A stretch of 64,000 nucleotides of DNA. It comes from Bacteroidota bacterium. Lineage in GTDB: Bacteria > Bacteroidota > Bacteroidia > B-17B0 > Aurantibacillaceae. The notes beneath the pieces are model-generated. The model saw only the letters and a list, made by a program, of their open reading frames with translations. It searched no databases and was not told where the DNA came from. Positions 4,130-31,339 of the stretch are shown here, one piece after another; within the stretch, counting starts at the first letter, position 1; the number at the start of each line of letters is the position of its first letter. The stretch spans positions 124,001 through 188,000 of the forward strand of contig JAUXZS010000029.1 in assembly GCA_030692515.1 (NCBI GenBank), read 5' to 3'. The position numbers were made by a program, and so were the translations under genes.

Positions 4130-4798
4130 ATGACAATTTCTCTTACAGAAGAAAATTACCTTAAAGCAATTTATACTTTAAGTCGCTTGGGGGATGAATC
4201 TGAAGTGACCACCAACGAAATTTCTAAACACCTTAAAAACAAAGCGGCTACTGTTACCGATATGCTTAAGCGTTTGGCTGAGAAAAAATTAATTAATTAC
4301 ATTCCCTACCAAGGAGTTAAATTAACGGAAAAAGGAAAACGCACTGCCATTAAAGTAGTTAGAAAACATCGCTTATGGGAAGTTTTTTTAGTGGATAAAT
4401 TAAATTTTAAATGGGATGAAGTGCATGAAATTGCAGAACAATTAGAACACATAAATAGTGATGAATTAATACAACGCTTGGATGTTTTTTTGGGGAAACC
4501 AAAGTTTGATCCTCATGGCGACCCAATCCCAGACGCTAACGGCCAATTAAATACCATAAAAGCTCTTCCATTAAATCAACGTAAATCAAAAGGCAATTTT
4601 ATTTTTGTTGGTGTTAACGAACATTCAAAATCTTTTTTACAACACCTTACCGGTATAGGTTTAAAAATAGGCGATTCGTTATTAATAGAAGAAATAAACG
4701 AGTTTGATAATTCTTTTAAAGTAAAAATAAATAAAACTAACAGTCAGTTTTTTAGTAATAAAGTAGCTTCTAATATTTTAGTTGAAATTAAAAAATGA
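4130..4798 (+). CDS. mntR: DtxR/MntR-family metal-dependent transcriptional repressor
   Basis: 222 residues starting MTISLTEENYLKAIYTLS, the usual N terminus of iron/manganese-dependent DtxR-family repressors. Order: winged helix (about 1-60), metal-binding and dimerisation region rich in His, Glu and Asp (about 61-140, including VVRKHRLWEVF and HEIAEQLEHI), and a C-terminal FeoA/SH3-like domain (about 145-222). The ATG at 4130 is chosen over an in-frame TTG two codons upstream because it gives the family N terminus. Its stop overlaps the start of the NRAMP gene (ATGA), so the two are translationally coupled. It most likely represses mntH, and itself, when Mn(II) is plentiful; regulation by Fe(II) cannot be excluded. 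Confidence 0.88.
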   Translation: MTISLTEENYLKAIYTLSRLGDESEVTTNEISKHLKNKAATVTDMLKRLAEKKLINYIPYQGVKLTEKGKRTAIKVVRKHRLWEVFLVDKLNFKWDEVHEIAEQLEHINSDELIQRLDVFLGKPKFDPHGDPIPDANGQLNTIKALPLNQRKSKGNFIFVGVNEHSKSFLQHLTGIGLKIGDSLLIEEINEFDNSFKVKINKTNSQFFSNKVASNILVEIKK

Positions 4799-6657
4799 GC
4801 AAGTCCTTAGAAGAAGTTAATGCAAGTGTAAACACAAACTCAGGCAGCCCAATAAAAAGGTTGCTTGCATTCTTGGGTCCTGCCTACATGATTAGCGTTG
4901 GTTATATGGACCCAGGCAATTGGGCAACCGACATTGCTGGCGGAAGTAAATTTGGCTATAGCTTATTATGGGTTTTAGTAATGAGTAATATTATTGCTTT
5001 ATTATTGCAGAGTCATTGTGTACGATTAGGAATTGTAAGTGGCAAAGACCTTGCTCAAGCATCTAGAGAAACTTACCCAAGATTTGTAAATTTATTTTTA
5101 TATGGCTTAGCAGAAATTGCCATTGCTGCTTGCGATTTAGCAGAGGTTATTGGAATGGCAATTGGTATACATTTATTATTCCCTAACATTAGTATTTTAG
5201 TTGGTGTTTGTATTACAGTAACCGATAGTTTTATTTTATTGTTTTTATTAAACAAAGGCATTAGAAAATTAGAAGCCTTTATTATTTGTCTCGTACTTTT
5301 AATTGGCGTTTCTTTTTTTATTCAACTCACCATTGCAAAACCCGAATTAGGAGAAATTGCAGGAGGCTTATTTCCATTCATACAAAACGACGAAGCCCTT
5401 TATATTGCTATAGGAATTATTGGTGCAACCGTTATGCCGCATAATTTATATTTGCACAGCTCCTTAGTTCAAACCCGAAAGTTTAAACGAAACCCCGTAG
5501 AAATAAAAAAAGCAATTCGTTTTAATATTATTGATAGCGCCATTGCATTAAACCTTGCCTTATTTGTGAACGCAGCTATTTTAATTTTAGCCGCCACCAC
5601 TTTTTTTAAAATGGGAAAATTTGATGTGGCCGAAATAGAAGATGCGCATCAATTGTTAGAACCCATGTTAGGAAGCACACTTGCTCCCATTTTATTTGCA
5701 GTAGCTTTAATTGCAGCCGGACAAAGCTCAACCATAACCGGCACATTAGCTGGACAAGTTGTAATGGAAGGTTATTTAAATTTACGTTTACAACCTTGGA
5801 TTAGAAGATTACTAACAAGATTAATTGCAATCATCCCTGCGTTTTTAACTATCTATTTTTTGGGAGATGGCGCGTCTGGAAGACTATTAATTTTAAGTCA
5901 GGTTATTTTAAGTTTACAATTAGGTTTTGCTGTTATTCCATTAATTCATTTTGTGAGTGATAAAAAGAAAATGGGTGAATTTGTAATTCCACTATGGCAA
6001 AAAATTCTTTCTTGGATAGCTGCTTTAATTATTATTTCGTTAAATGTAAAATTGGTGTTTAATGAGATTTCTGATTTAATCCTTAATGGTGAATCATCTT
6101 TACTTTTTAGCTTTACACTTGTGCCTATATGTATTTTTTGCATACTCATGCTTGTATATATTACTGTTGTGCCATTTATAACTAAAGAAAAAATTAATAA
6201 AAACTTAGGTTTTCATAACGAGTTATCGCCCTTAAAATTAGATTTTGCAACTAACATTAAACGCATTGCGGTGACTGTAGATTTTAGCGATAGCGATAAC
6301 AAAGCCATTAACAAAGCATTACAATTAGGAAATAAAAACTCTACCTTAATTTTAATTCATATTTTAGAAAGCACCAATGCCATGGTGTATGGCGAAAACT
6401 CATTTGATTTAGAGCGCGAAGAAGATTATCAAAAATTAAAAAAGTACCAGCAAGAATTACAAGAACAAAATATTACAACCGAAATACAATTAGGTTTTGG
6501 AATTCCAAAACAAGCAATACCCGAACTCATTATTAAAAATAATTGCGATATCATTATTATGGGAACGCACGGACACAGAACCATAAAAGATATTTTATTA
6601 GGAAGCACTATCGAAAGTGTAAGGCACGAAATTAAAATTCCTTTGGTGTTGGTGTAA
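4795..6657 (+). CDS. mntH: NRAMP-family Mn(II)/Fe(II) transporter fused to a universal stress protein domain
   Basis: 620 residues. The first 460 or so are an NRAMP proton-coupled divalent-metal importer with about 11 membrane helices. The TM1 metal-binding motif is MDPGNW (38-43) and the TM6 motif is MPHNLYLHSS (from residue 214). From about residue 489 to the end is a universal stress protein domain starting KRIAVTVDFS and ending with the nucleotide-binding pattern MGTHGHRTIKDILLGS. Such fusions are familiar in Bacteroidota; the Usp domain may sense nucleotides or modulate transport, but its role is not established. Co-transcribed with the repressor. The last 18 codons, from AGC at 6603, are repeated three times downstream (see the tandem array). 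Confidence 0.9.
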   Translation: MSKSLEEVNASVNTNSGSPIKRLLAFLGPAYMISVGYMDPGNWATDIAGGSKFGYSLLWVLVMSNIIALLLQSHCVRLGIVSGKDLAQASRETYPRFVNLFLYGLAEIAIAACDLAEVIGMAIGIHLLFPNISILVGVCITVTDSFILLFLLNKGIRKLEAFIICLVLLIGVSFFIQLTIAKPELGEIAGGLFPFIQNDEALYIAIGIIGATVMPHNLYLHSSLVQTRKFKRNPVEIKKAIRFNIIDSAIALNLALFVNAAILILAATTFFKMGKFDVAEIEDAHQLLEPMLGSTLAPILFAVALIAAGQSSTITGTLAGQVVMEGYLNLRLQPWIRRLLTRLIAIIPAFLTIYFLGDGASGRLLILSQVILSLQLGFAVIPLIHFVSDKKKMGEFVIPLWQKILSWIAALIIISLNVKLVFNEISDLILNGESSLLFSFTLVPICIFCILMLVYITVVPFITKEKINKNLGFHNELSPLKLDFATNIKRIAVTVDFSDSDNKAINKALQLGNKNSTLILIHILESTNAMVYGENSFDLEREEDYQKLKKYQQELQEQNITTEIQLGFGIPKQAIPELIIKNNCDIIIMGTHGHRTIKDILLGSTIESVRHEIKIPLVLV

Positions 6658-6666
6658 ATTGCAGTA

Positions 6667-6711
6667 AGACCTTCAAGGTCTTAACAAATTTCCGAGAGAC
6701 CTTGAAGGTCT
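6667..6711. terminator. Double AGACCTT(C/G)AAGGTCT hairpin after mntH
   Basis: AGACCTTCAAGGTCT (6667-6681) and its exact reverse complement (6697-6711) form a 15-bp stem with a 15-base loop; each arm is also nearly self-palindromic. Ten bases after the mntH stop it could end transcription, though no long U-tract follows. The same palindrome recurs at 7210-7254 in the third unit of the array and resembles dispersed intergenic repeats seen in other Bacteroidota. Confidence 0.55.
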
Positions 6712-6829
6712 GAAAAGATTGAGTGAATTAATTCTTTGACTAACAAAACCCAATGTCGTGCTGACGAAGGAAGCATCTATTGTATAGATACCAAATAATA
6801 AACCCAGAAAATCTTTATTAGCTAAATTT

Positions 6830-6906
6830 CGTCATTGCGAGGCTTTTTTGCCGAAGCAATCTCATACTTAGAGTTGTTTGAGATTGCTTCGTTCCTCGCA
6901 ATGACG
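6830..6906. repeat. REP-like 77-base hairpin, copy 1
   Basis: Outer arms CGTCATTGCGAGG (6830-6842) and CCTCGCAATGACG (6894-6906) pair over 13 bp. Inner arms GAAGCAATCTCA and TGAGATTGCTTC pair over 12 bp around a short loop. The sequence matches the style of dispersed extragenic palindromes (TCATTGCGAGG...GAAGCAATC) known from several phyla. It sits at the end of the first array unit. Confidence 0.85.
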
Positions 6907-7058
6907 CAAAAGCAGAAAGCACCACCGAAAGTGTAAGGCACGAAATTAAAATTCCTTTGGTGTTGGTTTAACACATTTTCATGTCATGCTGACGAAGGAA
7001 GCATCTAAATTAGAGATATAAAAAGACAATCATAAAAAAATTGATTTAATAAAAAGTT

Positions 7059-7135
7059 CGTCATTGCGAGGCTTTTTTGCCGAAGCAATCTCATACTTAG
7101 AGTTGTTTGAGATTGCTTCGTTCCTCGCAATGACG
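7059..7135. repeat. REP-like 77-base hairpin, copy 2
   Basis: Same sequence and length as the copy at 6830, at the end of the shorter second unit, whose middle part differs. Both outer and inner arms are conserved. Confidence 0.85.
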
Positions 7136-7209
7136 CAAAAGCAGAAAGCACCATCGAAAGTGTAAGACACGAAATTAAAATTCCTTTGGTGTTGGTTTAA
7201 ATTGCAGTA

Positions 7210-7254
7210 AGACCTTCAAGGTCTTAACAAATTTCCGAGAGACCTTGAAGGTCT
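7210..7254. repeat. Double AGACCTT(C/G)AAGGTCT hairpin, second copy
   Basis: Arms at 7210-7224 and 7240-7254 repeat the hairpin that follows mntH, with identical spacing, directly after the third copy of the gene tail. Confidence 0.8.
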
Positions 7255-7372
7255 GAATAGATTGAGCGAATTAATTCTCTGACCAACAAAACCCATTATC
7301 GTGCTGACGAAGGAAACATCTGTCGTATATATACCAAATAATAAACCCAGAAAATCTTTATTAGCTAAATTT

Positions 7373-7449
7373 CGTCATTGCGAGGCTTTTTTGCCGAAGC
7401 AATCTCATACTTAGAGTTGTTTGAGATTGCTTCGTTCCTCGCAATGACG
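7373..7449. repeat. REP-like 77-base hairpin, copy 3
   Basis: Third copy of the hairpin, closing the third unit; it is followed by the fourth and last copy of the mntH tail. Confidence 0.85.
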
Positions 7450-7535
7450 CAAAAACAGAAAGCACCATTGAAAGTGTAAGACACGAAATTAAAATTCCTT
7501 TGGTGTTAGTGTAGAATGGTCTTCTCGCAAGCAAA

Positions 7536-7695
7536 TGTCACATCGAGTAGAAAATTCTGTCTCTTTGAAAGCTTGCAAACAAGCCGGCTCAAATGTAAAC
7601 AATACATTTTCCCTGTATCGAGATGCTGAGAGCTTCATTGCGTTCTCGATACAATTTTTCGCAAGAGGCAAAGCGAAAAATCACTCGAACTGACA
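7536..7695. mobile_element. Small MITE-like element bounded by imperfect inverted repeats
   Basis: TGTCACATCGAGT (7536-7548) and ACTCGAACTGACA (7683-7695) are inverted repeats matching at 11 of 13 positions. Inside are two perfect stems: TGTATCGAGA/TCTCGATACA (7614-7623 and 7644-7653) and ATTTTTCGC/GCGAAAAAT (7654-7662 and 7673-7681). No transposase and no believable ORF is present, and no target-site duplication is obvious. It could be a non-autonomous element or a compound extragenic repeat. The remaining bases up to 7762 hold nothing recognisable. Confidence 0.5.
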
Positions 7696-7762
7696 TGCCC
7701 TGATGTCTTACTGAACGTTTAAGAGGGGTTCGATAAGAACCAAAAACAGTAGTAGAAATACG

Positions 7763-9352
7763 TCACCTAATCAAACTTACATTTCCTTTTATGTCTTTAA
7801 ACTCATTAAATCTGTTAGTATATTTGATTAAATAAAAATAAACACCACTACCACATACTTCGCCACTTGTAGTGTGACCATCCCAATTAATAGTGTTGAT
7901 TTTAGAGTTCTCGTTTAATATTGATTCTTCAATACTATAAATTAAAGCTCCCCATCTGTTATAAACGTAAACAGAGTTTAATCTTGCGCCAAATGGCATT
8001 TTAAAACGCCAAACATCATTTACGTTATCATCATTTGGAGTGAAGATATTTGGGATTACTAGTTCTTTAAAACAGGTATCGCTTACTTCAATTGTTATAG
8101 TGTAGTTTTTAATAAAGGGACAAAATAATCCTGAACCATCATTTTTAATTGAAATGTTTATGTCATAAAAGCCTGCTGAAATAATTGTATTACTTATTTT
8201 TGCCTGAGTAAAAGTATTAGTGTAACTTTTTAATGATAGATTGCTCTGCCAATTATAACTTGTGCCTAACGTTGGTGTATTTATTACTATTAAATTAGTA
8301 GTATCATTAGGGCAAAGAACTAAAGAACTGCTTTGTATTTGCGGCGTGCCTATAAACTTTGGTTTTACCTGAATAAATACAGTATCTTTTGTAATTATAC
8401 CACAAACATCCTGATGCACAATATAATTTTGCGATGTTGTAGGCTTAACATATAATCCCCCACCTGTTGCAATTTGCGAAGCGTTATTAAACCAAATACA
8501 TTCTAAACCAACCTCGGGCGGACGACCAATAAAAACACTATCGCCATTGCATAAAACTGTATCTCTCCCTGCGTAGGGTGGTAAATCAGCTTCAATAACC
8601 GACACGTCATCGATATAATATTCAGCAACCATTCCAATCGACAAGGGATAAACAAGGCTATATGTTGCAGTGGCATAACTTTTAAAATTACCAAGAGTAA
8701 GATAATTTTCAGTTCCTGTTGCAGTAAAAGTACCTTGAACTTTCATCCAATTTAAAGTGTCAGAATAGAATACACCTGTTGGACTTTTGACCTGAGGATT
8801 CACTATAGCTTCTCTTGCAGGTAAAATTGTCGCAATAGTACCGCTATCAAAATATAAACCTAATTCGTCAATTGCATACTGTGATCTATTTAATAAATTA
8901 GCATAATGCGTAACGCAATATTTTTTATCCTTAAGTAATTTTTTTATTAATTGGGTTTGTATATAACTTCTCCATGAAACAGAAGCTGGTGAGCTTTTAA
9001 AATAATTCATATAAGCGTACGCACGGCCTGAACGAGGAAGTTGGTCAAGCACATTAGTGTTAAAACAATCTGAATTCGAATTTCCACCACCGCCACCGCC
9101 TTTAAGACTATCCCAGCCATTTGCGTTATTGATATAAAAGGAGCCTCCACAGATATCAACATCTTCAAAGCTTGGATTAATAACATAATTTACTTGCCCT
9201 AAATTTATTAGATATAAAAAACAAAAAACAAAAGACAAGAGATAGTCCCTTGCCTTTTGTTTAAAAATTGAAACAAAAATTTTATTTGTTAATAATGATT
9301 TTATGTAAATCATAAGTACCATCTGGTAATTTAACTTTTTTAAAATAAGCAT
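7763..9352 (-). CDS. T9SS type B cargo protein with gliding-associated C-terminal domain
   Basis: Up to 529 residues. After a hydrophobic export segment (about residues 35-55) comes a region starting INPSFEDVDICGG, like the N-terminal beta-sandwich of many secreted Bacteroidota proteins. Next is a Cys-containing Ig/PKD-like middle part (GRDTVLCNGDSVFIG; SSSLVLCPNDTTNL). A CHU_C gliding-associated domain closes the protein (about 440-529: IFTPNDDNVNDVW, YNRWGALIY, WDG, GVYFYLIKY, end GNVSLIR). That domain is a T9SS type B sorting signal, so the protein is exported to the surface or medium. Ligand and function are unknown. The start is uncertain; the first ATG lies 2 bases after the preceding gene and leaves a long leader. 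Last gene of the B12-riboswitch operon. Confidence 0.8.
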   Translation of the reverse strand: MLILKKLNYQMVLMIYIKSLLTNKIFVSIFKQKARDYLLSFVFCFLYLINLGQVNYVINPSFEDVDICGGSFYINNANGWDSLKGGGGGGNSNSDCFNTNVLDQLPRSGRAYAYMNYFKSSPASVSWRSYIQTQLIKKLLKDKKYCVTHYANLLNRSQYAIDELGLYFDSGTIATILPAREAIVNPQVKSPTGVFYSDTLNWMKVQGTFTATGTENYLTLGNFKSYATATYSLVYPLSIGMVAEYYIDDVSVIEADLPPYAGRDTVLCNGDSVFIGRPPEVGLECIWFNNASQIATGGGLYVKPTTSQNYIVHQDVCGIITKDTVFIQVKPKFIGTPQIQSSSLVLCPNDTTNLIVINTPTLGTSYNWQSNLSLKSYTNTFTQAKISNTIISAGFYDINISIKNDGSGLFCPFIKNYTITIEVSDTCFKELVIPNIFTPNDDNVNDVWRFKMPFGARLNSVYVYNRWGALIYSIEESILNENSKINTINWDGHTTSGEVCGSGVYFYLIKYTNRFNEFKDIKGNVSLIR

Positions 9353-9354
9353 CT

Positions 9355-10482
9355 TTAAGAATTAATCACCTCTACCAACTTTTTACAATTTTCAGCATTA
9401 TCAAAATTTGAAATTTGTTTTTTTCGTTCTTCAAGATGAGATTCAGAAAATGGTAATGCATAAACAGAATTAATTTTTTGAATAAAATCAGTTCCTGAAT
9501 TTACAATCATAAAGCCATTATTCTCCTTAATTCCCGTGCCTTCCGTCATGTTTTTGTTGCAAACAATAAATCTGCCTTTAAATAACACGTTTAATAATTT
9601 TAATTTTAAACCAGTTGGTTGAGCTGTATATAAAACATGCATTTGTGCATCATGAATTAATTTATTCATTTCGCTTTCCTGAGGACTATCCATTAAACTT
9701 ATGTGTTGATGATTTTTGATTGCATCTTTTAAAAAGTCTGGAGGATTTAAGCCTGCAATAACAATCGGTAATTTTATTTTAGAAAAAACATTTTCTATTA
9801 ACCAAATTGCAGCTTCGTAATTTTCGGAAATACTTAAGTTACCATGAAACAATATAAATTTACCAATACCAAGCTCGCTAGTTAATTTTTCGTTGGCATG
9901 AAAACTCGGCAAATACAATGTTTTAACTTTTGGATAATTTACTTTAAAATAATCGGCATCGGTTTGGTTTACGGCCAAAATATAATCGGTATGGCCTACA
10001 ATAGATTCGAAACGTTTTAATTTTTTCGCTTCTATTTTTAAATAGATTTTTTTTAAACTGTTTTTTTCAGACTTAGATAATTCTAAATAATAATCGTGTT
10101 CGATATTGCTATGACGGTATATTTTTTTTCTGTTCGCAAAACGTTTATCATTTAATAAATAGCAAGTATGCAACACTTCAAATAAAATAGGAAAACCGTT
10201 TGATAATAAATTCTTCTCTAATTCTATTGATTGTCGTGATTTAACGGTATAAGGAAGTAATGATAGATTGGCCAACAAACCAGTTTTGCGCTCGTAATAA
10301 TAAACCTTTTCGCACAAGGCTTCTAATTCTGGAGATGGTTTTCTGCCGTAACTGAAACAATGTAAATAAATTTTAATGCCAGCTTTTTTTAACCAAACCA
10401 ATTTATAATAAACATCAATTACCCCTCCGTAATTTGCAGGAAAAGGCACATCAAATGAAATTATATTAATTGCGTTGCTCAA
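9355..10482 (-). CDS. GT-B fold glycosyltransferase (family 4-like)
   Basis: 375 residues with the two-domain layout of group 1/GT4 glycosyltransferases. The N-terminal Rossmann part (INIISFDVPFPANYGGVIDVYYKL) has the early Gly-Gly acceptor loop. The C-terminal domain opens with FHGNLSISENYEAAIWLIE and reaches the nucleotide-sugar region GLKLKLLNVLFKGRFIV. No signal peptide or membrane helix, so it is probably cytosolic or peripheral. It starts 19 bases after the propeller lipoprotein gene and ends 2 bases before the T9SS type B gene, so it belongs to the same transcription unit. Its substrate and any link to B12 uptake are unknown; it may glycosylate an exported operon product, which is speculation. 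Confidence 0.75.
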   Translation of the reverse strand: MSNAINIISFDVPFPANYGGVIDVYYKLVWLKKAGIKIYLHCFSYGRKPSPELEALCEKVYYYERKTGLLANLSLLPYTVKSRQSIELEKNLLSNGFPILFEVLHTCYLLNDKRFANRKKIYRHSNIEHDYYLELSKSEKNSLKKIYLKIEAKKLKRFESIVGHTDYILAVNQTDADYFKVNYPKVKTLYLPSFHANEKLTSELGIGKFILFHGNLSISENYEAAIWLIENVFSKIKLPIVIAGLNPPDFLKDAIKNHQHISLMDSPQESEMNKLIHDAQMHVLYTAQPTGLKLKLLNVLFKGRFIVCNKNMTEGTGIKENNGFMIVNSGTDFIQKINSVYALPFSESHLEERKKQISNFDNAENCKKLVEVINS

Positions 10483-12551: not shown

Positions 12552-14537
12552 TTATTTTTTCGTTTGTAATGTAATACCAATTTCATAATTTCTTAAAGGC
12601 ATTGGTCGGCCTAATAGGATTGTATAATTTTCATTAAATAAATTATTGCATGCTCCAAAAACATTAAAGCTAATCACTTTAAAATTAATTGTATGGTTTA
12701 ATCGTAGAGAAGAAATCTGATAAGGATTTAACCATTGCGAATTATCGCTAGTAGTATAGCGATAACCAACATATTGATTAAAAAAAGTAATTGCTGTTTT
12801 TTTGTATCCAATTAAAACATTCGAATTAATTGTATAGCGCGGTGTATAAATTAATTGTTTGTTAACCGAGTTGTTATTTTCTTGATTGTTAGATTCAATA
12901 GTTGACAGCACATAACCTGTTACAATATTTACAGCACATCTAAATTTGTTTTTAATATAATTAACCCGCCAGGTTGTTTCTGCTCCTCTACTCCAAACTT
13001 GTTGAATGTTTATTGGAGAAGGATTTCCTCCCGCACCGGGAATCCATAATATCCAATCATTAATTTTTCTGTTAAACACTGCTCCGGAAACAAAAAAAGT
13101 AGTGTTATTAATTTGTCTGTTATAATTAATGGCGCCTTCTTGCGTATAACCTTGTTCGGGTTTTAAATTAATATTACCGCCCGGCAACCAATACAACTCA
13201 TTTAATGTTGGGTGGCGATAAACTTTAGCACCATTTAATGTTAAAGCAATTTGTTTGGTTAATTTATAATCTGCAGAAACATTTCCTGTAATTGGGAATG
13301 CGCCCGTACTAAAATAATCTATTCTTGCGGCAGTATAAACCAAAAGTTTGTTGTTTAAAAATGAAAATTTATTGCCAAGCAAAAACGATAATTTATTTAA
13401 ACTTTTTGTTGATGCGTAATTATTGGTTGTAGCAGAACTGGATGTAAAATTTACTCCAAAATTTAGTTGGTGTTTTTTATTCCAAGTTAAATAATTTTCG
13501 TTTTCTGCAATTAAAGTTTGTGTTTTACTTTTAGAAAATAATTGAACAAGACTATCGGTATAATTAATTTTATCATTAAAATAACCGGCTCTTATTGTTG
13601 ATTTAAAATTTGTATTTATAAAACTCCAGTCGGCAGTAATTCTCGACGCCACATCATCTTGGTACGTTTTACTTTCTGTTTTATAATCATAAGATGGTAG
13701 TCGCCTTTGATTTGAATTTATCCAAGCATTAACTGAAAGTATTTGTTTTGAATTAATTAAAAATTTTAATTCCTGCATTAATCCTAAAAAATTATAATCG
13801 GCATTTTTTTGTTGTTTAATTTGATTTTCCTTATCGGTAGTGTCTTTATAGTTAAAATTATTGTTACTGATATTATTATAAACTTTTGTTGAAGAAATAA
13901 AACGGCTTTTACTAAATAAAATATTTGTAGATAGGTTTTTTAAACCAAAACTCCCAGCTCCAATACTTGCCGATGTAGTTAAACCTTGATTAAATAAATT
14001 AGAGTTTTTTAAATGTATGCTTCCACCAACCGCGCCACTACCCCATAAAGAAGAAGAACCTCCATATTCTATTTCAATATTTTCAAAAAGAGAAGCGGGA
14101 ATTAAAGAAAGATCGGATTGACCCAGCATAGCATTTTGAATATTAAATCCGTTCCATAAAATTGCGGTCTGCGAGGCGTTACCACCTCTAAAACTTGTTG
14201 TAGATAATGCTCCCGGCCCATAACTTTTAATAAAAATGGGTGTATTTAAACTTAAAACATCAGCAATAGAATTAAATTTAAATTGTTGTTTAATAGTAGA
14301 ATCAATTGTTTCAGTTTTTTTTCCAATTCTAGAAAGTTCTATTCTATTTGCCCTTACCTCCACATTTTTTAAGGAGATAGTATCTTGAGCAAAAAAATAA
14401 TTTGTAGCTAAGGCCAATAAAATAACAGCCTTAATTTTAAAATTAAATCCACAAGCAAAATGCTTATTTATTGTTACAGTCAATTTTTGATAATTTTTGT
14501 GCGTCTTTAGCCTCACATCCCGAAAGCTTTTAAACAT
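12552..14537 (-). CDS. btuB: TonB-dependent receptor, BtuB-like cobalamin transporter
   Basis: Up to 661 residues. A signal peptide (core AVILLALATNYFFAQ) is followed by a TonB-box-like segment DTISLKNVEV, a plug domain (about 60-185: TTSFRGGNASQTAILWNG, LWGSGAVGGSIHL) and a 22-strand barrel (HPTLNELYW, KPEQGYTQEGAINY, NLFNENYTILLGRPMP). The barrel imports its ligand across the outer membrane using TonB energy. The riboswitch directly upstream identifies cobalamin as ligand. The start is uncertain: the ATG at 14537 touches the aptamer and gives about 35 residues before the hydrophobic core; GTG or TTG codons further in are alternatives. First gene of a five-gene operon. Confidence 0.88.
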   Translation of the reverse strand: MFKSFRDVRLKTHKNYQKLTVTINKHFACGFNFKIKAVILLALATNYFFAQDTISLKNVEVRANRIELSRIGKKTETIDSTIKQQFKFNSIADVLSLNTPIFIKSYGPGALSTTSFRGGNASQTAILWNGFNIQNAMLGQSDLSLIPASLFENIEIEYGGSSSLWGSGAVGGSIHLKNSNLFNQGLTTSASIGAGSFGLKNLSTNILFSKSRFISSTKVYNNISNNNFNYKDTTDKENQIKQQKNADYNFLGLMQELKFLINSKQILSVNAWINSNQRRLPSYDYKTESKTYQDDVASRITADWSFINTNFKSTIRAGYFNDKINYTDSLVQLFSKSKTQTLIAENENYLTWNKKHQLNFGVNFTSSSATTNNYASTKSLNKLSFLLGNKFSFLNNKLLVYTAARIDYFSTGAFPITGNVSADYKLTKQIALTLNGAKVYRHPTLNELYWLPGGNINLKPEQGYTQEGAINYNRQINNTTFFVSGAVFNRKINDWILWIPGAGGNPSPINIQQVWSRGAETTWRVNYIKNKFRCAVNIVTGYVLSTIESNNQENNNSVNKQLIYTPRYTINSNVLIGYKKTAITFFNQYVGYRYTTSDNSQWLNPYQISSLRLNHTINFKVISFNVFGACNNLFNENYTILLGRPMPLRNYEIGITLQTKK

Positions 14538-14540
14538 TGT

Positions 14541-14690
14541 GCCTTTGGCAGGTCTTCTGACTTATCCTTAATAAAACGCCTTCCCGTTTTAACAGTGGCT
14601 TACGAATGTTTTATTTCCAAAAAGGACTCACAGCAGCGGGTACTATTAGTGAATTTCACACTATTCCCTATTAATCTTTTGCATGCCAGC
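14541..14690 (-). ncRNA. Cobalamin (B12) riboswitch aptamer
   Basis: On the minus strand the aptamer shows the standard elements in order: P1 arm CTGGCA, AATAGGGAA, GTGTGAAATTCAC, the core CCGCTGCTGTGA, GCCACTG, GGGAAGGCG, and the B12 box AGTCAGAAGACCTGCC (14547-14562) followed by the closing P1 arm. It lies between a promoter motif and the BtuB-like gene, so the operon should be shut down when cobalamin is bound. The expression platform must overlap the first codons; no terminator hairpin with U-tract was found, which favours translational control. Confidence 0.93.
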
Positions 14691-14739
14691 ATAACTTTTT
14701 TATGGTCAGACTGGTTTTAAAAAAGAACCAATTGCAGGG

Positions 14740-14747
14740 CAAAGATA
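14740..14747 (-). promoter_or_regulatory. Predicted -7 element of the B12 operon
   Basis: TATCTTTG on the minus strand, a full match to TAnnTTTG, about 50 bases ahead of the aptamer. No convincing -33 element is visible. Confidence 0.55.
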
Positions 14748-29937: not shown

Positions 29938-29975
29938 TAAAAAAACCTGCATGAACATCATGCAGGTTTTTTTTT
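29938..29975 (+). terminator. Rho-independent terminator
   Basis: Stem CCTGCATGA (29946-29954) / TCATGCAGG (29958-29966) with a three-base loop, flanked by A-run and T-run, 20 bases past the stop of the TPR-PD40 gene. The A-rich side could also terminate leftward transcripts. Confidence 0.9.
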
Positions 29976-29990
29976 ATGTTCATTCAAATT

Positions 29991-30038
29991 TTATTCTTTT
30001 TCCAATAACATCATCGCCCAGTTCGTGCGGATTTTGTA
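29991..30038 (-). pseudogene. Remnant copy of the prmA 3' end
   Basis: On the minus strand this encodes Y-K-I-R-T-N-W-A-M-M-L-L-E-K-E-stop, against S-Y-K-N-E-N-E-W-A-M-M-L-F-E-K-E-stop at the end of prmA. The final 30 bases (29991-30020) match 26 of 30 in prmA (30512-30541), with three of the four differences synonymous. It lies on the same strand as prmA, about 475 bases past its stop. It has no start of its own and is a gene-tail duplicate, not a functional gene. Confidence 0.65.
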
Positions 30039-30259
30039 ATCCTTGCGCAATATAACTCGTAAAATAATTTCCTTTTTAAAATTAATTTAGTAAGCGTTTT
30101 TGCATTCATGAAATTCGAAGCTGAAAGTTAAATAATTCTCTTTCTAATATAGTCGACCATCAAATTCTCGGTAACGCCTATCTTTATTGATTTAAATTTT
30201 AAATTACGGGATAAATATCTGCCGGAAATATTTACAACATCTTAAATTTTCGGTATTTT

Positions 30260-30413
30260 TTTTGTCACTTTTGGCGCTCAAAAGTAACCAAAACGCTTTT
30301 GATCTTTTGAAGGAGATTTTTATTTTGGCGATGTAGAGACAGCCAAAATAAAACCATTGCCTGTCTAAACTCTTGTCTGCATGCCGATTCAACTAACCGC
30401 AGAGTTTAGACAG
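30260..30413. repeat. Cluster of three perfect inverted repeats between prmA and its tail copy
   Basis: ACTTTTG/CAAAAGT (30267-30273, 30279-30285), TTTTATTTTGGC/GCCAAAATAAAA (30318-30329, 30342-30353) and CTGTCTAAACTC/GAGTTTAGACAG (30361-30372, 30402-30413). The first resembles a dispersed CTTTTGGCGC-type intergenic repeat of this phylum. No ORF in 29976-30511 is convincing; short ones show no family features. The stretch could be a non-coding RNA, a repeat element, or both. Confidence 0.7.
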
Positions 30414-30511
30414 CAATTATCTCTGCAAAAAATCAAAATAACATTACGTTGAAAAACTGTGCGCCAATAAAACTTATTTTCTAAATTGACTTTTTGAGGG
30501 ACGACTATTTA

Positions 30512-31339
30512 TTATTCCTTTTCAAACAACATCATTGCCCATTCATTTTCATTTTTATAAGAAACAAATTTTAAGTTGTGTTTGGCGGCAACGCTTTTTA
30601 ATTCATCCATATCGGTTACAAAAAAACCACTTAAAAATAATTTTCCAGTTGACGCTAATTTTTTTGCGTAAAACTCCAAATGTTTTTTTAAAATATTTTT
30701 ATTAATGTTTGCAATAATCATATCAAAGGGTTTTTCATTTTCTAATGATTCAATATCTCCCTTTGTTACAACTATTTTACTGCAATTATTTGTCGCGCAA
30801 TTTTCAATACTGTTCTCAACACTCCATTCATCAATATCAATTGCTAAAATATCAGTTGCTCCTAATTGCATAGCCAAAATAGCTAGTATGCCCGTACCAC
30901 AACCCATGTCTAAAACTCGTTTGTTATTAAAGTAAGTTTCAAACATAGCTCTGCATACTAAACGTGTTGTTTGATGATGACCAGTACCAAAACTCATTTT
31001 GGGCATAATCACTATTTCATGCTTTACTTTATTATTTTTTTCATGAAACGGAGCACGAATAGAAAGTAAATCATCAACTAATACAGGTTCAAAGTTTTTT
31101 TCCCATTCAGCATTCCAATTAGTAAGTGGAATTTTTTTTATCTCGCAAGTAAATTTAAAATCCTCGAAATCAAAATTAGATAACTCAACGTTGGTTGCAC
31201 TCTCTTCTTTTATATAAGCAGTAAATCCTGAATCGTTAAAATCAAAACTATCAAATTCATATTCAGAAATTAAAGCCATTAAAATTTCAGAACCCGGCTC
31301 TGGCGGACTAACTGTAAATTGATAACTTAAATAACTCAT
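30512..31339 (-). CDS. prmA: Ribosomal protein L11 methyltransferase
   Basis: 275 residues. An N-terminal substrate-recognition domain (about 1-95) is followed by a class I SAM methyltransferase domain: MPKMSFGTGHHQTTRL (about 110-125), VLDMGCGTGILAILAMQLGA (about 138-157), IIANINKNIL (the PrmA NPPY-like region) and FLSGF. It methylates lysines and the N terminus of ribosomal protein L11. It follows tpiA by 9 bases in a permease-tpiA-prmA operon. Its last 16 codons have a diverged copy about 475 bases downstream. Confidence 0.93.
   Translation of the reverse strand: MSYLSYQFTVSPPEPGSEILMALISEYEFDSFDFNDSGFTAYIKEESATNVELSNFDFEDFKFTCEIKKIPLTNWNAEWEKNFEPVLVDDLLSIRAPFHEKNNKVKHEIVIMPKMSFGTGHHQTTRLVCRAMFETYFNNKRVLDMGCGTGILAILAMQLGATDILAIDIDEWSVENSIENCATNNCSKIVVTKGDIESLENEKPFDMIIANINKNILKKHLEFYAKKLASTGKLFLSGFFVTDMDELKSVAAKHNLKFVSYKNENEWAMMLFEKE

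What the first reader, a model, noticed from the sequence alone, without database searches (positions are those of the whole stretch)
6602..7515. Transporter gene tail repeated three times, in frame, with palindromic DNA between the copies
Seen directly: the last 57 coding bases of the mntH-usp gene (18 codons with stop) recur at about 6917, 7146 and 7460. Units of 315, 229 and 314 bases each end in the same 77-base hairpin. Differences between copies are mostly synonymous, and every copy keeps the stop codon. A simple duplication would not need to preserve synonymous changes only, so each copy may once have been the working gene end. Inference: a repeat element that duplicates or regenerates a gene's 3' end when it inserts, or serial unequal crossover that always leaves an intact gene. 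Unit 2 has a different middle, which argues against one recent tandem event. The prmA locus looks alike.
Basis: partly seen in the sequence, partly recalled or inferred. Interest (0 to 1): 0.75.

Follow-up and report, generated by a model that had tools for sequence, protein, structure and literature searches.

The report
Displaced gene ends beside transferred DNA
The end of a metal-transporter gene is repeated three times behind the gene, and similar left-over gene ends lie behind other genes in this and related bacteria, most likely as footprints of DNA that was added at a gene's end while the gene got a new, working tail.

Summary
The last 54-57 bases of mntH-usp (4795-6657) recur at 6917, 7146 and 7460 (spacings 314, 229, 314), each behind an identical 77-base hairpin. 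Seven sites vary in the 54-base tail; six changes are silent.

No clear copy was seen in 29 genus relatives (one had only 45 bases to read). prmA is similar: a 30-base in-frame prmA tail lies 492 bases downstream, attached to the flank that several relatives have behind prmA.

In 2266 genes of this genome and other, mostly Bacteroidota, sequences, 11 gene tails recur in downstream non-coding DNA (0.07 expected), against 2 gene heads upstream. Over nine other loci 55 of 92 differences are silent, far above neutral. An aconitase-cargo-displaced-tail module is shared with a distant species. Two cargo genes match phage-defence candidates.

Best reading: homology-anchored recombination adds DNA at a gene's 3' end, gives the gene a new tail and displaces the old one; at mntH this is combined with tandem copying of a palindrome-rich spacer. 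No dedicated element or enzyme is shown. Related events are known; the short, stop-aligned, 3'-biased form at housekeeping genes looks like a new variant.

The parts
4795..6657 (+). mntH-usp gene (Nramp transporter fused to a universal stress protein domain); its last 55 bases are T0 (6603-6657)
6667..6711 (.). GACCTT double palindrome in spacer U1 (6658-6916)
6759..6778 (+). TGCTGACGAAGGAAGCATCT palindrome half in U1; G024 and G010 carry a longer palindrome of this kind directly behind their single gene end (by eye)
6830..6906 (.). 77-base hairpin, copy 1
6917..6971 (+). tail copy T1, one Ile-to-Thr change; T1 with the start of U2 is the part of the array that matches the gene ends of G024 and G010 best
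6987..7006 (+). palindrome half in U2 (spacer 6972-7145, without the GACCTT insert)
7059..7135 (.). 77-base hairpin, copy 2, identical
7146..7200 (+). tail copy T2, silent changes only in the 54-base tail
7210..7254 (.). GACCTT double palindrome in U3 (spacer 7201-7459)
7302..7321 (+). palindrome half in U3, one mismatch
7373..7449 (.). 77-base hairpin, copy 3, identical
7460..7514 (+). tail copy T3, five silent changes against T0 including TAA to TAG; homology to T0 ends at the stop codon
7515..7762 (.). flank behind T3, unlike U1-U3
7763..9352 (-). CHU_C (type IX secretion signal) gene between mntH-usp and the gene (9355-10482) whose relative follows directly in G024 and G010 (by eye)
29991..30020 (-). 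displaced prmA tail, followed by its flank and a terminator-like hairpin (29939-29973)
30021..30511 (.). about 490 bases without an ORF of 100 aa between the working prmA stop and the displaced tail; the first 60 have no match behind prmA in the 11 relatives compared
30512..31339 (-). prmA (ribosomal protein L11 methyltransferase), working copy

Best explanation
These are displaced gene ends. Step 1 (inferred): incoming DNA from a related cell, carrying the 3' end of a gene plus extra DNA, is anchored by homology in the resident gene. Step 2 (inferred): its other side joins inside the resident gene's last 24-211 bases, either by illegitimate joining or as single-crossover integration of a small circle. 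Step 3 (seen as structure): the resident gene keeps an intact, slightly different tail, then comes the new DNA, then the old tail, which at prmA and aconitase is still attached to its native flank. The gene is never broken, so the event is tolerated at 3' ends. In the mntH-usp array the same kind of end was multiplied: a unit of gene tail plus palindrome-rich spacer was copied in tandem, probably by strand switching or unequal exchange at the hairpin spacer, with exchange between diverged alleles, so the copies carry mostly silent differences. The last copy, T3, is followed by a different flank and an extra gene. No dedicated enzyme is proposed.
For: (a) prmA: displaced tail plus 60 bases of flank aligns with G032 at 94% over 52 bases and with G014 at 84% over 86; the working tail aligns no more than 3 bases past its stop in any of 11 relatives; the displaced tail is nearer to G032 (29 of 30) than to the working tail (26 of 30). 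(b) Aconitase in G000: displaced tail plus flank aligns with five relatives over 131-142 bases (78.8-83.1%) and a sixth over 82; the working tail extends at most 3 bases past its stop in any of the eight loci compared. (c) 11 of 2266 genes have their tail repeated in downstream non-coding DNA at score 22 or more, 0.07 expected; gene heads upstream 2, 0.10 expected; Fisher p 0.022. (d) Nine loci other than the window's mntH: 55 of 92 differences silent, 24.6% expected, p 8e-13; without the two longest 24 of 35, p 7e-8. (e) Homology stops within 3 bases of the stop codon at mntH T1 and T3, prmA, aconitase, C58, arginase, G001a, L152 and C66:37185. (f) U1 and U3 differ in clusters: 10 of 88 bases in the middle, 0 of 77 in the hairpin, longest identical run 124, permutation p 0.008; sites 6624 and 6654 show all four combinations among T0-T3, so exchange or a repeated change is needed. 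(g) Aconitase, BRO gene and displaced tail occur in G000 and the distant G006, unbroken at 82% over BRO end and tail, each with its own flank. (h) Homologous-plus-illegitimate joining, and circularisation with single crossover, are described in PMC3240628 (abstract).
Against: No empty-site strain of the same species was available, so the steps are inferred. All four mntH tails share codon CCT where the seven closest relatives have CCG or CCA, so any donor was of the same lineage. At C58 the two tails are closer to each other (86%) than to any of seven relatives, which fits plain duplication too. At aconitase two of eight loci (G024, G006) do not share the native flank. At prmA three of 11 relatives gave no match for displaced tail plus flank, and G021 gave none for either tail. 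G003 shows no case in 314 genes. The 3'-versus-5' bias may be selection only. At L194, L140, C66:491, C66:605 and mntH T2 homology runs past the stop into a repeat or terminator, as tandem duplication predicts.
Confidence: 0.55

Rival explanations
1. Plain tandem duplication of gene tail plus spacer by replication slippage at the hairpins, followed by drift. The gene keeps its end because the copy nearest the gene stays in frame; mostly silent changes are luck or recent age.
For: The hairpin is a strong palindrome. Tail plus repeat are copied together at mntH T2, L140, C66:491 and C66:605. Short shared letters (AAGCAC) lie at the junction.
Against: Silent excess at mntH and pooled elsewhere. 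T3 is followed by a different flank, not a spacer. At prmA and aconitase the two tails have different flanks, only one of them native.
Confidence: 0.22
2. Site-specific integration: the gene tail is the attachment site of a small element moved by a tyrosine integrase acting in trans, as is recalled for islands in the 3' ends of tRNA genes or mnmE.
For: Same topology; short 3' repeats, 11 of 13 measured loci at 24-70 bases; an mnmE-like case in L152; the aconitase module shared by two species.
Against: No integrase was recognised among the six cargo proteins scanned; no common motif noticed at the starts of the copies (by eye); many unrelated genes are hit; displaced tails are diverged. The genome was not searched for integrases acting in trans.
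Confidence: 0.08
3. Assembly artefact: strain variants of a metagenome were joined so that two alleles of one gene end lie in series.
For: The identical run of 124 bases could mislead short-read assembly.
Against: Cases also occur in the single-contig G001 and in the Flavobacterium hercynium DSM 18292 record. The aconitase module is found in two separate genomes.
Confidence: 0.1
4. The array is kept for a function, such as transcription termination between convergent genes or mRNA 3'-end protection by stacked hairpins, and the tail copies ride along.
For: The hairpin is identical in three copies while the spacer middle differs; convergent gene layout.
Against: No clear tail copy behind the gene in 29 relatives, one of them with only 45 bases to read; no expression data; does not explain coding-like changes in the tails.
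Confidence: 0.05

Closest known systems
Homology-facilitated illegitimate recombination (HFIR)
   Same: One side joined by homology, the other without; integrates small DNA molecules (PMC3240628, abstract).
   Different: Described from laboratory transformation and conjugation, at 3 in 10^10 per recipient cell in that abstract; here only end products are seen.
T6SS orphan immunity arrays and rhs orphaned 3' regions (PMC5361080, passages read)
   Same: New module inserted at a gene's 3' part, old 3' part and downstream gene pushed back, repeated to make arrays; the authors propose an HFIR-like mechanism.
   Different: There the new 3' end is a different module and the displaced immunity gene is kept; here the tail encodes nearly the same peptide and most leftovers are 24-70 bases at housekeeping genes.
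rtT repeats behind the E. coli tyrT tRNA genes (recalled; no paper found)
   Same: Tandem units behind a gene, each starting with a copy of the gene's 3' end (recalled).
   Different: tRNA gene rather than protein gene, so no coding constraint on the copies.
CGTC-tagged REP palindromes (PMC3733652, passages read)
   Same: The 77-base hairpin starts with CGTC and has the form of two inverted halves.
   Different: Rare in this genome (11 exact hits of the 13-base core, six of them in this array); family consensus not compared.
Small variable segments (PMC2884548, passages read)
   Same: Short variable segments, 10-18% flanked by direct repeats; illegitimate recombination proposed.
   Different: The passages read do not describe repeats that are copies of a gene's own end with stop codon.

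Membership tests
Products of homology-anchored insertion (HFIR type) | One border inside a homologous gene, other border without homology | tested here: met
   prmA and aconitase: working tail followed by DNA unlike the relatives' flank, displaced tail followed by native flank; the donor itself was not seen
Products of homology-anchored insertion (HFIR type) | Donor and recipient alleles of different origin | tested here: inconclusive
   prmA and aconitase tails lean to different relatives over short stretches; C58 and mntH tails do not
Products of homology-anchored insertion (HFIR type) | Microhomology at the illegitimate border | not testable with these tools
   donor sequence unknown; only AAGCAC shared at the mntH junction
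Integrase-made 3'-end integration | Integrase gene in the element | tested here: not met
   none among six cargo proteins scanned; non-coding inserts and trans-acting integrases were not scanned
Integrase-made 3'-end integration | Direct repeat of the gene's 3' end with the gene restored | tested here: met
CGTC-tagged REP | CGTC end tag and palindromic stem | tested here: met
   sequence and fold; in this double form the tag letters pair with their inverted copy
CGTC-tagged REP | Match to a published family consensus, high copy number | tested here: inconclusive
   few copies in the genome; consensus not compared
REP moved by RAYT transposase | RAYT flanked by the same REP | not tested
   four Y1_Tnp matches in the genome; their flanks were not read

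The most novel reading that the evidence does not exclude
Gene-end cassettes: once cargo is bracketed by two copies of a conserved gene's last 25-70 bases, the host's own recombination can move it between species and add it behind the same gene again and again without harm, like an integron without an integrase. Single-gene phage-defence candidates (PDC-S13 behind aconitase, PDC-S27 behind an arginase-family gene, perhaps an AAA_15 ATPase behind methylmalonyl-CoA mutase in G001) would use such sites; the mntH array would be a non-coding run of the same kind.
Probability: 0.2. Interest if true: 0.8.

Novelty: new variant of a known kind. Interest (0 to 1): 0.55.

Why it matters
Displaced gene ends are a simple, countable footprint: a stop-aligned, in-frame copy of a gene's own tail in the non-coding DNA behind it. 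They mark where single genes or spacers were added, can tell which side is native, and can be searched for in any genome. If the defence-gene link holds in a larger count, they would point to how lone defence genes spread outside islands. Here 2 of 6 cargo proteins match PADLOC models at E of 1e-100 or less, against 3 to 5 of 120 random, not size-matched proteins (the table gives families, not members); p 0.018 to 0.036, chosen after the fact.

Tried and rejected
Dedicated REP transposition as cause: four Y1_Tnp matches exist in the genome, but the passages read say that CGTC palindromes apparently lack a dedicated transposase, and it would not explain the loci where the tail is followed by a cargo gene. 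Set aside, not excluded.

Known RNA family in the array: the only match in the window at gathering thresholds is a cobalamin riboswitch at 14530-14747.

First self-comparison of the window showed only one palindrome and not the known repeats; redone with short queries. A first reading of relatives forgot strand and was redone. A first protein-level survey had controls inflated by neighbouring genes and was redone with ORFs masked. The nucleotide survey did not list prmA (no exact 9-base seed) and left out genes within 2500 bases of a sequence end, L152 among them.

Rows left out of the pooled silent count: three nucleotide-level hits, namely C66:37185 (62 bases, 77%, stop not kept), C66:605727 (tail of 32-33 bases, stop not kept) and C68:88047 (25 bases, not at the stop); two short ones, C66:491324 and C66:375907; and G001:322929, which scored 32 at protein level but has no nucleotide match. 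Protein-level detection favours silent changes; of the nine pooled loci seven were also found at nucleotide level and prmA; L152 was found at protein level only. Changes inside one locus were counted as independent.

Weak hits among relatives: G004, G027 and G036 gave matches of 18-22 bases between the last 300 bases of mntH-usp and downstream DNA; the one in G004 is an AT-rich 18-base match near the gene end. I treated them as chance.

Paper searches that gave nothing useful. In the listings I saw no paper on displaced tails at housekeeping genes; this does not show that none exists.
Full report
What is there. mntH-usp (4795-6657) encodes an Nramp metal transporter joined to a universal stress protein domain. 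Its last 55 bases (T0) recur at 6917, 7146 and 7460 (T1-T3), giving T0-U1-T1-U2-T2-U3-T3-flank. U1 and U3 hold a GACCTT double palindrome that U2 lacks; all three hold one half of a TGCTGACGAAGG palindrome and a 77-base hairpin that is identical in the three units and folds far better than shuffles (z -9.8). In the whole-genome search no tail turned up elsewhere among 29 listed matches (40 of 70 candidates scored).

The tails look like coding sequence. Among four 54-base tails seven sites vary, six silently, one of them in the stop codon; the exception is Ile to Thr in T1. Chance under random change is 0.0006, or 0.004 with fourfold transition weight. A further mismatch at 6602 near the junction would be non-silent if counted; then it is 6 of 8, chance 0.002 to 0.012.

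Relatives. I read the gene end and downstream DNA of 29 orthologues from the genus (30 loci with G000; 40 of 40 genomes have the gene). G026 had only 45 bases downstream, G034 and G038 826. No copy comparable to those in G000 was seen; G004, G027 and G036 gave matches of 18-22 bases that I take as chance. In G024 and G010 the single gene end is followed by a palindrome with TGCTGACGAAGG and then, by eye, by the next gene; their best match in the array is T1 with the start of U2. So T1-U2 seems to keep the oldest arrangement, and the CHU_C gene (7763-9352) behind T3 is extra in G000.

prmA. A 30-base in-frame prmA tail with stop lies at 29991-30020, 492 bases behind the prmA stop. With its flank it matches the prmA ends of G032 (94% over 52 bases) and G014 (84% over 86), whereas the working end goes no more than 3 bases past its stop in any of the 11 relatives compared. 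Three of the 11 gave no match for displaced tail plus flank, and G021 none for either tail. The displaced tail is therefore most likely the native end.

Survey. A stop-aligned protein test on 1404 genes of G000 (about 1.66 Mb of 4.33 Mb) gave 7 genes at score 32 or more, 0.5 expected from permuted tails; G003 0 of 314 (0.1 expected); single-contig G001 3 of 315 (0.2), one of which has no nucleotide support; 80 named loci, mostly Bacteroidota, 3 of 732 (0.0); the 58 mntH and prmA loci of relatives 0 of 234 genes. A nucleotide test on 2266 genes found 11 tails repeated downstream at score 22 or more (0.07 expected) and 2 heads repeated upstream (0.10 expected), p 0.022 for the difference. Of the 11, C68:88047 is not at the stop, and C66:37185 and C66:605727 have lost the stop.

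Two forms. In the first the copied stretch ends within 3 bases of the stop codon and cargo or other DNA separates the tails: prmA, aconitase (68 bases, 88%), C58:291149 (211 bases, 86%), arginase family (127 bases, 80%), methylmalonyl-CoA mutase in G001 (70 bases, 80%), an mnmE-like gene in L152, a Cyclobacteriaceae assembly (64 bases, 95%). In the second the match goes on behind the stop into a repeat or terminator: mntH T2, a dtxR-like gene in Flavobacterium hercynium DSM 18292, C66:491, C66:605, and mntH-usp again in L194, a Chitinophagaceae assembly, where the shared part is a terminator-like hairpin and a gene lies between. An lgt-like gene in G001 lies between the two forms (32 bases, match ends 7 past the stop). 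The names mnmE, dtxR and lgt are recalled from the protein tails; no family search was run for them. Displaced tails are 24-211 bases long, median 50 over 13 loci (lengths entered by hand).

Origin of the differences. Over nine loci without the window's mntH, 55 of 92 differences are silent where 24.6% is expected (p 8e-13); without the two longest 24 of 35 (p 7e-8). Divergence therefore arose mostly while both tails were in use. Some tails have since decayed (stop codons inside the arginase and G001 copies).

A shared module. In G000 the working aconitase end is followed by a terminator-like hairpin, a BRO-N gene and a displaced aconitase tail. With its flank this displaced tail aligns with the aconitase ends of five relatives over 131-142 bases and a sixth over 82, of eight loci compared. 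G006, whose mntH-usp protein is 74% identical, has the same order; the match runs unbroken over the BRO end and the displaced tail at 82%, with a different flank behind it. G008 has a BRO gene about 1.9 kb behind the aconitase end, and G075 a stretch like the BRO 3' part 374 bases behind it, too close for a full gene of this kind; no displaced tail was listed for either. This shows cargo travelling next to the aconitase end, in two cases together with the tail.

Cargo. The BRO-N gene matches PADLOC PDC-S13 (5e-126), the ATPase behind the arginase-family gene PDC-S27 (1.7e-196), and the ATPase in G001 is AAA_15 with best PADLOC match AriA (1.4e-19). Three other cargo proteins (L194, L152, C58) match nothing in Pfam or PADLOC. 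Among 120 random G000 proteins five PADLOC models reach 1e-100 with one member each, so 3 to 5 proteins; 2 of 6 against these gives p 0.018 to 0.036. PDC stands for phage defence candidate (PMC11514479, passages). This is a lead on few cases, chosen after the fact.

Mechanism. The structure gene-new tail-insert-old tail-native flank is what homology-anchored insertion or single-crossover integration of a small circle gives. Both are described (PMC3240628, abstract), and serial displacement of 3' ends into arrays was proposed for V. cholerae T6SS loci, with rhs genes named as a like case (PMC5361080, passages). For mntH, U1 and U3 differ in clusters (10 of 88 in the middle, none of 77 in the hairpin, p 0.008), and two tail sites (6624, 6654) show all four combinations, which points to exchange between diverged alleles rather than one duplication. 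All four tails share a codon not seen in the seven closest relatives, so this happened inside the lineage.

Limits. Junction microhomology could not be tested. The 3' bias may reflect selection, because insertion before a gene separates it from its promoter.

Verdict. The regenerating-element idea is not needed; gene-end renewal by recombination explains most of it. New variant of a known kind, interest 0.55.

Noticed in passing
window 14530-14747 (-): Cobalamin riboswitch (Rfam RF00174) in front of the gene 12552-14537, which looks like a TonB receptor by eye.
   Followed up: no
L231:14803-18121 (G000:C68) and L271 (G006:C85): Aconitase, BRO-N gene (PDC-S13) and displaced aconitase tail in two distant species.
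   Followed up: partly
L308:3548-8892 (G001:C1): AAA_15 ATPase (best PADLOC match AriA) behind a methylmalonyl-CoA mutase gene, followed by a displaced 70-base tail.
   Followed up: partly
G000:C66:199687-202427: Arginase-family gene and convergent ATPase (PDC-S27) with a decayed 127-base arginase tail beyond it.
   Followed up: partly
L152:6888-9053: mnmE-like tail (64 bases, 95%) displaced past a 213-residue gene without a family match; mnmE is recalled as an integration site of islands elsewhere.
   Followed up: partly
L140:7593-7986: Flavobacterium hercynium DSM 18292: dtxR-like gene tail and a 150-base repeat duplicated in tandem, an array of the same build as the finding.
   Followed up: partly
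G000:C66:375907-377178 (-): By eye, a REP-like palindrome is read in frame inside the coding end of a gene, shortly before its last residues, with an 8-residue tail copy behind the gene.
   Followed up: no
G024:C6:68194-68760: Second, broken prmA-like copy (54% identity over residues 94-274, six stops) in G024.
   Followed up: no
window 7515-7762: By eye, the flank behind T3 holds a further palindrome (around TATCGAGATGC...TTCTCGATA), so several palindrome families meet in this one intergenic region.
   Followed up: no
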